Part shown: in pieces, positions 31,147 to 33,282 of the stretch
How the letters are laid out: each line of letters opens with the position of its first letter
Position numbering within the stretch: position 1 is the stretch's first letter
Assembly (NCBI GenBank): GCA_015231915.1
Contig: JADGAR010000012.1
Span: 20,099-84,098 of the forward strand
Source of the DNA: Magnetococcales bacterium
GTDB taxonomy: Bacteria > Pseudomonadota > Magnetococcia > Magnetococcales > Magnetaquicoccaceae
Reading direction: 5' to 3'
Length of the DNA: 64,000 nt
Notes under the pieces: generated by a model
Told to the model about the DNA's origin: nothing
Databases searched by the model: none
Seen by the model: the letters and a program-made list of their open reading frames with translations, nothing else
Made by a program: the position numbers and the translations under genes

Positions 31147-33282
31147 ATGGAGGCAGCGGCGATGTCGAGCGCTAGATTCCTGCTGGCAACCCTGACCGTG
31201 CTCCTGGCGACGTTCCTGTTGCTGTACGCCTGGCTCTTCGCCCCGGAAAGGAAAGAGGTGCTGGCCATCGGTCTGGGCGCCCCCCTGAGCGGCCCCTTCC
31301 GGGAGATCGGACACTCCATGCGCCGGGGCGCCGAACTGGCCGTCCAGCACATCAACCAGCGCGGCGAGTTGAAAAATTTCACCCTGGAACTGGTCACCGC
31401 CGACGACAAGAGCGGTACGAACGTCAATGTCCAGGCCGAAAAAGCGGCCAGGGAACTCATGACCCGCTCCAACATCGTCGGCGTGGTGGGACACTACTTC
31501 AGCGTGCCCACCATCGACGCAGGCGATATCTATCGCATGCATTCCATACCCTTCATCACCCCTTCCGCCACCCTGCCGACCCTGACCGCCAACAACGACT
31601 GGGCCTTCGGCATCATGCCCGACGACTACTATCAGGCCCTGTTCCTGGCCAACTACGTGATCCACGGCCTCAACCGCAAAAAGATCGCCGTGATCCACGC
31701 CCGGGACCCCTATGGCAACTCCCTGAGCGAGTTCTTTGCCAGGGAGTTGCAGGTCAACAATCTCAAGCCGACCGTGTTCGTCGGCCTCGACAAGGAGAAT
31801 TTCCAGCCGGCCCTGCTCAAGGATCATATCGATGCCTTGAACCAGTCCGACATCGTCTTCCTGGCCATGAACTACGTCAACGCGGCCAAGGCGATCCAGT
31901 TTCTGCGCAAGAACAGCATGAATACCGATTTCATCGGCGCGGAAAGCCTGGGGGGCGCCCATTTCCTCCAGGAGGCGGGAATCTACGCCGAGGATGTCTA
32001 CGCCGTCACCCCTTACCTCCCCAGCCTCTTCGGCGAGGAGTCGAAACATTACCAGCACGACTACATCAAGGAGTTCCAGCGCGAGCCGGACTGGGTTTCC
32101 ACCTACTCCTACGAGGCGGTCAAGCTGCTGGCGCATGCCATCGGTCAGGTGGGCAGGGATGGCACGCGCATGCGCAATTTCATGCGCAAGATGATCTCCC
32201 GTCAGGAGGCCCTGCTTGGCATCGCCGGAGACCTCCATTTCAACGAAACCGGTTCCAGCCGGCGTCCTCTGTCGGTCGGCCAGGTCAAGCAGGGGCGTTT
32301 CATCCCGGCCCGCTTCCAGTTGACCCATGTCAAATACCAGGAACTGGCCAAGGCCAAGAGCGACGAGGAGGGGGCCGACATCTTCACCATGGAGGGGCGC
32401 TTCATGAAGCGGGCCACCGTGGTCCATACCGGCATTCACGTGGATGAGATCAAGGCCTTCAACCCGGTGGAAGGCTCTTTTGTCGCGGATTTCAATCTCT
32501 GGTTTCGCTGGGACCCGAACAGAAACAAGAACCTTGATTTCGAGATGACCTACGGCAAGGTGTTGAGCGCCAGCGTGCGGGAAAAATACTTCGACGAAAA
32601 GACCAACAGCAATTTCATCTCGTATGCCGTCTCCTCCCGCATGGTGGACGAGTTCCCCCTGCACGAGTACCCCTTCGATCAGCAGGTCCTGAAAATCCGC
32701 ATCAAGCCGAAACTCAAGACCAGCGAGGAGCTGATTCTGGTGACCGACATCGATGACGATACCCTTTTGCACCGGAAACTGGATTTCGGCTCCTGGAAGG
32801 ATATCCGGCATTTTCACTTCACCAACTCCCGGGAGTTTTTGTGGAGCTATCGCAATCCCAAGTACGACCGCAAACTCTTCACCCTCGATCACGCCCAGTA
32901 CAACTACCACGTCATCCTGGAACGGAAAGTGGCGGCCTATGTGATCACTCTGTTGCCGCTGATGATCCTGGTGGCGTCCGCCTACGTGATCTTCACCATC
33001 GACTTCGAGTGGATCTCCTCCCGCTATACCGTGGGCATCACCACCATGTTGAGCGCCATGGCCTATCACAACGTCAACAAACTGGGCGTGGGCTATCTGG
33101 TGCGGGGGGATCTCTTTTTTCTCTTTTCCTATATTCTGTTCTTCTTCACCATCCTGGAGACCTCGGTGGTGGGATATTTTCGCAAGATCAAACGGGTGGA
33201 GATCGCGCAGCGGCTGGACCTCATCTCCTTGATCCTCTACCCGATTCTGGTCGGCGTTGCATTGGTCTTTCTGCTGAGGTGA
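31147..33282 (+). CDS. Periplasmic leucine-binding-like (PBP type I) receptor fused to a pentameric ligand-gated ion channel-like domain
   Basis: LIVBP part: GLGAPLSGPFREIGHSMRRGAELAVQHINQRGEL...GVVGHYFSVPTIDAGDIYRMHSIPFITPSATLPTLT. C-terminal: SRMVDEFPLHEYPFDQQVLKIRI (Pro-loop-like) followed by four hydrophobic segments. Start uncertain (31147 or 31162; ORF open from 31024). Confidence 0.85.
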   Translation: MEAAAMSSARFLLATLTVLLATFLLLYAWLFAPERKEVLAIGLGAPLSGPFREIGHSMRRGAELAVQHINQRGELKNFTLELVTADDKSGTNVNVQAEKAARELMTRSNIVGVVGHYFSVPTIDAGDIYRMHSIPFITPSATLPTLTANNDWAFGIMPDDYYQALFLANYVIHGLNRKKIAVIHARDPYGNSLSEFFARELQVNNLKPTVFVGLDKENFQPALLKDHIDALNQSDIVFLAMNYVNAAKAIQFLRKNSMNTDFIGAESLGGAHFLQEAGIYAEDVYAVTPYLPSLFGEESKHYQHDYIKEFQREPDWVSTYSYEAVKLLAHAIGQVGRDGTRMRNFMRKMISRQEALLGIAGDLHFNETGSSRRPLSVGQVKQGRFIPARFQLTHVKYQELAKAKSDEEGADIFTMEGRFMKRATVVHTGIHVDEIKAFNPVEGSFVADFNLWFRWDPNRNKNLDFEMTYGKVLSASVREKYFDEKTNSNFISYAVSSRMVDEFPLHEYPFDQQVLKIRIKPKLKTSEELILVTDIDDDTLLHRKLDFGSWKDIRHFHFTNSREFLWSYRNPKYDRKLFTLDHAQYNYHVILERKVAAYVITLLPLMILVASAYVIFTIDFEWISSRYTVGITTMLSAMAYHNVNKLGVGYLVRGDLFFLFSYILFFFTILETSVVGYFRKIKRVEIAQRLDLISLILYPILVGVALVFLLR

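What the first reader, a model, noticed from the sequence alone, without database searches (positions are those of the whole stretch)
31147..33282. Periplasmic amino-acid-receptor-like domain fused to a pentameric ligand-gated ion channel-like domain
Seen: about 400 aa of leucine-binding-protein-like sequence are followed by a beta-rich region with DEFPLHEYPFDQQVLKIRI (equivalent to the Pro-loop FPFDxQ motif of Cys-loop receptors) and four hydrophobic segments. Established: prokaryotic pLGICs exist (GLIC, ELIC, DeCLIC) and some carry extra N-terminal domains; PBP type I fusions have been noted in the literature as I recall it. Inference: a ligand-gated channel regulated by a bilobed, glutamate-receptor-like sensor. 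This is a chimera of two neurotransmitter-receptor logics in one bacterial protein.
Basis: partly seen in the sequence, partly recalled or inferred. Interest (0 to 1): 0.8.

Follow-up and report, generated by a model that had tools for sequence, protein, structure and literature searches.

The report
Amino-acid-receptor channel paired with chemoreceptor
A magnetotactic-type bacterium carries a protein that joins an amino-acid-binding receptor to a relative of our GABA-type neurotransmitter channels, and in every relative that could be checked its gene sits directly in front of a chemotaxis-receptor-like gene, which makes the old guess that bacterial 'nerve receptors' steer swimming directly testable.

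Summary
Window 31162-33282 (+) encodes about 706 aa: an N-terminal membrane helix, a LivJ-type periplasmic binding domain (Pfam 1.7e-38), then a pentameric ligand-gated ion channel (pLGIC) beta-sandwich and four transmembrane helices. A model of the C-terminal half returns only pLGICs among its 50 best PDB matches (GABA-A, GLIC, DeCLIC). The fusion is not new: Tasneem et al. (PMC549065) reported PBP-I/pLGIC fusions in 2004 and guessed a chemotactic role. (1) The gene heads a two-gene unit: a chemoreceptor-like (MCP) gene follows at once. All 20 copies of this partner in 48 Magnetococcales genomes lie next to such a channel or at a contig break. (2) The amino-acid-binding residues of LivJ are invariant in 34 relatives, while the classical Cys-loop loop-A stretch is shortened and M2 lacks the acidic ring of cation channels. 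(3) The same PBP-plus-sandwich module is also joined to MscS pores in some 200 protein clusters, including Azospirillum and Magnetospirillum; I found no paper on this. Best reading: an amino-acid-gated, probably anion-conducting channel working with an MCP. Domains and gene pairing are shown; gating, ligand, selectivity and signalling are inferred. In this assembly the MCP gene is frame-shifted at a run of 11 G.

The parts
31162..33282 (+).
31168..31236 (+). N-terminal hydrophobic helix (signal anchor or signal peptide), residues 8-30
   Evidence: AlphaFold helix 2-30; cleavage not tested
31255..32307 (+). LivJ/LIVBP-like PBP-I domain, residues 37-387; amino-acid contacts S119, T142, E266, Y189 invariant
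32398..32928 (+). pLGIC extracellular beta-sandwich, residues 418-594
32653..32685 (+). Pro-loop FPLHEYPFDQQ, residues 503-513; D511 invariant
32842..32865 (+). loop-C signature WSYRNPKY, residues 566-573, nearly invariant; P-x-Y core shared with most distant PBP-pLGICs and PBP-MscS proteins examined
32929..32997 (+). M1
33004..33075 (+). M2 pore helix; R626 at 0', S/T at -1', L at 9'; no acid at -2'/-1' in 34 of 34
33100..33186 (+). M3
33196..33276 (+). M4
33288..34974 (+). chemoreceptor-like (MCP) partner gene: TM, four-helix-type periplasmic domain, TM, cytoplasmic coiled coil with MCP tip; frame-shifted in this assembly
33987..33997 (+). run of 11 G in TM2 of the partner, +1 relative to the 96% relative (L047)
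34405..34520 (+). MCP hairpin-tip signature LNLLATSASVEATRTEGKRGFAIFTDEIKEIA

Best explanation
A receptor-channel that works with its own chemoreceptor. The periplasmic PBP-I lobe pair binds an alpha-amino acid and closes; the closure is passed through the pLGIC sandwich, whose classical loop-A site is reduced and which acts mainly as a coupling domain, to a five-fold M2 pore that opens and passes ions, probably anions. The MCP-like protein encoded directly downstream is made in step with the channel and turns its state into a CheA/CheW signal, either by touching the channel's periplasmic part with its conserved four-helix domain or by sensing the ion or voltage change. Shown: domain content, fold, conservation of the amino-acid-binding residues, filter composition, and the strict gene pairing. 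Inferred: ligand, gating, ion selectivity, pentamer, and coupling to the MCP.
For: PBP and pLGIC folds. LivJ contact positions Ser79, Thr102 and Tyr150 (docking study PMC6983066) align with S119, T142 and Y189, and E226 of LIVBP (my knowledge) with E266; all invariant in 34 of 34. The two marks Tasneem et al. call highly conserved, the acid in the Pro-loop and the base at the end of the LBD, are D511 and R593, both invariant. 0' Arg without -1' Glu matches their anion-type marks. All 20 partner genes, in 18 of 48 order genomes, are adjacent to the channel or at a contig break (G022), and none occurs without the channel; paralogue pairs in G014 and G016 move together. Stop-to-ATG gaps are 4 nt to roughly 130 nt, mostly under 45. 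Partner: MCPsignal in 16 of 17, TarH in 8 of 17; profile against Tsr 5.8e-26. The partner's periplasmic part is 43% identical pairwise and the tip 49%, but the rest of the cytoplasmic part only 19%: the reverse of ordinary MCPs (my knowledge), as if the periplasmic part had a fixed partner. The genome holds 21 CheW-domain matches.
Against: No function was measured. Moderate model confidence (pLDDT 72-79; loop C below 50); no pentamer was modelled. The MCP has no Pfam HAMP hit and one residue fewer in the hairpin turn than Tsr, so coupling to CheA may be altered. In this very assembly the MCP frame is broken. Adjacent genes can be co-transcribed without direct interaction.
Confidence: 0.5

Rival explanations
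1. Tethered binding protein: the pore is silent or of minor use, and the anchored PBP presents bound amino acid to the four-helix domain of the MCP, as maltose-binding protein does to Tar in E. coli.
For: Strict pairing with an MCP whose periplasmic domain is a conserved part; TarH-like sensor; PBP-MCP signalling is established in E. coli (my knowledge).
Against: M2 is strongly conserved, with 0' Arg, 12' Met, 15' His and 19' Lys invariant and 9' Leu in 33 of 34, not expected if the pore were idle.
Confidence: 0.2
2. The channel serves ion or pH homeostasis controlled by amino acids; the MCP is only co-expressed and does not read the channel.
For: Related PBP-sandwich modules sit on MscS pores and occur without this MCP; distant PBP-pLGICs in the order (L040-L042) also lack it.
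Against: The partner never occurs apart from the channel and the pair duplicates as a unit.
Confidence: 0.17
3. As proposed by Tasneem et al., the PBP only gathers the ligand, which then binds the usual inter-subunit site of the pLGIC domain and opens it.
For: Loop C carries an invariant aromatic-rich WSYRNPKY; their proposal.
Against: The W-x-P-D-type loop A region is shortened, with 47 residues between the beta-2 Trp and the Pro-loop Phe against about 73 in GLIC (my knowledge); the loop-D position is N or L, not aromatic.
Confidence: 0.1

Closest known systems
PBP-I/ART-LGIC fusions of Magnetospirillum magnetotacticum and Bradyrhizobium japonicum (Tasneem et al. 2004, PMC549065)
   Same: Same order of domains: PBP-I, pLGIC ligand-binding domain, four TMs.
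   Different: The paper reports operons with PBP-II or Cache genes; the MCP partner found here, in Magnetococcales, is not among them in the passages read.
DeCLIC (Desulfofustis), PMC9897478 and PMC12664993
   Same: pLGIC with an extra periplasmic N-terminal domain; Foldseek TM 0.66 to the window's channel half.
   Different: DeCLIC's extra domain is two beta-rich lobes and calcium-linked, not a PBP.
GLIC and vertebrate GABA-A receptors
   Same: Sandwich plus four-TM fold, Pro-loop or Cys-loop, M2 with 9' Leu or similar.
   Different: No PBP domain in those; here the loop A stretch is shortened and loop C is longer.
E. coli Tar/Tsr with periplasmic binding proteins (comparison for the partner gene)
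   Same: Four-helix-type sensor and MCP tip; profile match to Tsr 5.8e-26.
   Different: No Pfam HAMP hit, weakly conserved cytoplasmic coiled coil, one residue fewer in the tip turn.
MscS-family channels such as YnaI (comparison for the sibling proteins, not the window gene)
   Same: Pore domain of the siblings matches YnaI at about 2e-13.
   Different: Carry PBP-I and the pLGIC-type sandwich in front; no description found in the held library.

Membership tests
Pentameric ligand-gated ion channels (Cys-loop/Pro-loop) | Extracellular beta-sandwich plus four TM helices of pLGIC fold | tested here: met
   Top 50 Foldseek PDB matches all pLGICs, E about 1e-14 to 1e-15
Pentameric ligand-gated ion channels (Cys-loop/Pro-loop) | Acid in the Cys/Pro-loop and base at the end of the LBD | tested here: met
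   D511 and R593, 34 of 34; marks as in PMC549065
Pentameric ligand-gated ion channels (Cys-loop/Pro-loop) | M2 with 9' hydrophobic gate | tested here: met
   L635 (9'), 33 of 34
Pentameric ligand-gated ion channels (Cys-loop/Pro-loop) | Classical orthosteric site (aromatic box, loop A motif) | tested here: inconclusive
   Loop A stretch shortened and loop D not aromatic; loop C aromatic-rich; no ligand model
Pentameric ligand-gated ion channels (Cys-loop/Pro-loop) | Pentamer that conducts ions on ligand binding | not testable with these tools
   Needs electrophysiology and a complex structure
PBP-I of the LivJ/LIVBP (HAAT) type | Fold and amino-acid-contact residues | tested here: met
   LivJ 4gnr E 1.3e-26; S119, T142, E266 invariant
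Methyl-accepting chemotaxis proteins (partner gene) | MCP signalling domain with hairpin tip | tested here: met
   MCPsignal in 16 of 17; Tsr profile match 5.8e-26
Methyl-accepting chemotaxis proteins (partner gene) | HAMP domain and methylation sites | tested here: inconclusive
   No HAMP hit in 17 members, but not all MCPs have one; methylation sites not scored
Methyl-accepting chemotaxis proteins (partner gene) | CheA/CheW coupling | not testable with these tools
   Tip residues equivalent to Tsr E385 and R388 kept in all or nearly all members; coupling itself needs experiment

The most novel reading that the evidence does not exclude
The Cys-loop receptor sandwich under a PBP is a general bacterial transducer that has been placed on at least two unrelated pores, pentameric pLGIC and (by homology heptameric) MscS, and in Magnetococcales the pLGIC form is a dedicated sensory channel read out by its own chemoreceptor: an ion-channel-to-chemotaxis receptor complex.
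Probability: 0.35. Interest if true: 0.87.

Novelty: new variant of a known kind. Interest (0 to 1): 0.64.

Why it matters
What bacterial relatives of neurotransmitter receptors do in their own cells was left as a guess in 2004 (chemotactic receptors, PMC549065). A strictly linked chemoreceptor gives that guess a concrete, testable partner. The PBP-sandwich-MscS siblings, present in cultured Azospirillum, suggest that the extracellular half of Cys-loop receptors is a module separable from its pore and from five-fold symmetry, which bears on how these receptors and their gating arose.

Tried and rejected
Chance or spurious ORF: rejected (codon bias, 40 homologues). Histidine-kinase or other TM module: rejected. 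Foldseek on the full model showed only PBP-type domains in its first 50 rows, so the channel half was modelled alone. The genome-contig scan gave only four loci; the genome search gave more. The search for homologous proteins with a distant PBP-pLGIC gave seven proteins. Papers on MscS fusions or a pLGIC-MCP operon: none found; the library lacks most subscription journals, so absence there is weak. Promoter and terminator scans were little better than shuffles. The G11 run could be sequencing error, recent frameshift or phase variation; the 96% relative lacks it and these tools cannot decide.

Full report
Observation. The ORF at 31147-33282 is real and encodes an N-terminal membrane helix, a LivJ-type PBP-I, a beta-sandwich with a Pro-loop and four TM helices. 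The start is more likely 31162 (relatives). The genome is a Magnetococcales MAG; its nearest named relative is Magnetococcales bacterium WMHbin3 at 96% protein identity. The C-terminal half has the pLGIC fold: all 50 best PDB structure matches are pLGICs, with GABA-A beta3 at 3.5e-15, GLIC at 3.7e-15 and TM 0.63, and DeCLIC at TM 0.66. By sequence the family profile reaches GLIC-GlyR and GLIC-GABA-A chimeras at about 1e-15 to 1e-14. Selection on the gene is purifying.

What is known. Tasneem et al. (PMC549065) described N-terminal PBP-I fusions of prokaryotic pLGICs in M. magnetotacticum and B. japonicum and suggested that such receptors act in chemotaxis. The architecture is therefore known. 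[quoted passage not shown]

Sensor. In an alignment of 34 relatives the positions that contact the amino acid in LivJ are invariant: S119, T142, Y189 and E266 (E226 of LIVBP is from my own knowledge). An amino-acid ligand is therefore likely, though which one is open. The classical loop A stretch of the pLGIC domain is shortened and the loop D position is Asn or Leu, so the sandwich more likely couples than binds; loop C carries an invariant aromatic-rich motif that keeps a second site possible.

Pore. M2 carries Arg at 0', Ser or Thr at -1', Leu at 9' in 33 of 34, and no acid at -2' or -1' in any of 34 members. By the marks used in PMC549065 this is nearer to anion channels. Selectivity remains untested.

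The partner. Five bases after the stop codon of the channel (33280-33282) an MCP-like gene begins at 33288. It is broken in this assembly by a run of 11 G at 33987-33997; the 96% relative has an intact frame there. Homologues follow the channel on the same strand in every locus with room downstream. A profile of the partner, searched through 48 Magnetococcales genomes, finds full-length copies in 18 genomes, all of which hold the channel; G014 and G016 hold two pairs; in G022 channel and partner lie at contig ends; in G017, with the channel but no partner found, the channel gene is cut off by the contig end. The profile was built from adjacent genes, but it would also have found distant copies, and only two generic MCP cytoplasmic matches in G027 appeared. 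The Fisher value left out G017 and treats related genomes as independent, so it is only a guide. Distances of channel and partner correlate at r = 0.97, which is partly shared ancestry; the paralogue pairs, where each MCP keeps to its own channel type, are the stronger point. The partner has a TarH-like periplasmic domain and an MCP tip. Its periplasmic part is far better conserved than most of its cytoplasmic part (43% against 19%), as expected if it meets a fixed partner.

Siblings. Other proteins of the order, including a contig-end fragment in this genome (L002 1387-3216), carry the same PBP and the same sandwich. Full-length relatives continue into an MscS pore. A protein search found 224 clusters at E <= 0.001, nearly all of the 120 listed ones with the MscS domain and most with the PBP too, from Magnetospirillum, Desulfamplus, Rhodospirillales, Gallionellaceae and others. 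The sandwich is homologous: hhalign 98.6% against the window family, and a pLGIC of this class from a metagenome, P0039, aligns to MscS-type sandwiches over 185-241 residues at 102-108 bits. Some carry a cyclic-nucleotide-binding domain as well, among them P0167 and an Azospirillum sp. B510 plasmid protein. In L045 a PBP-sandwich gene with one TM lies directly before a separate MscS-cNMP gene, a split form of the same protein. I found no paper describing this class, in a library that lacks many journals.

Judgement. Known architecture, new genetic setting. Best reading: an amino-acid-gated channel, probably for anions, working with a dedicated chemoreceptor (0.5). The main alternatives are a tethered binding protein that signals to the MCP without using its pore, a homeostatic channel with an unrelated neighbour, and classical gating at the sandwich.

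Noticed in passing
L002 1387-3216 (G000:C13, contig end); L028-L030; P0042-P0161; L078 2881-6252: PBP-I plus pLGIC-type sandwich joined to an MscS pore, sometimes with a cNMP-binding domain; 224 clusters at E <= 0.001, including cultured Azospirillum and Magnetospirillum. No description found in the held library.
   Followed up: partly
window 33987-33997: Run of 11 G shifts the frame of the chemoreceptor gene by +1 relative to a 96% relative: sequencing error, recent frameshift or phase variation.
   Followed up: partly
P0039 (1189 aa, metagenome): PBP-I + pLGIC + a second, PBP-II-type domain after M4: two binding proteins on one channel.
   Followed up: partly
L045 5923-7350 and 7366-9513: Split form: PBP-sandwich-one-TM gene directly before a separate MscS-cNMP gene, fused in P0167.
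   Followed up: partly
L042 7418-8626 and 8601-10946; L043 8032-9144: Small PBP-less pLGIC-like proteins; in L042 the gene overlaps that of a distant PBP-pLGIC, a possible second subunit, with histidine-kinase genes beside it.
   Followed up: partly
window 26534-30779 (-): Divergent cluster of an M50 peptidase-HlyD protein and two HlyD-type adaptors; an M50 homologue recurs beside the channel in at least L038, L039, L048-L050 and L061.
   Followed up: partly
L040 9905-10720 (-): A voltage-type Ion_trans channel gene lies next to a distant PBP-pLGIC (718 aa).
   Followed up: no
window 34971-35267: Small ferredoxin/thioredoxin-like [2Fe-2S] protein directly after the chemoreceptor gene (Pfam E 0.0019, below cut-off).
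   Followed up: no
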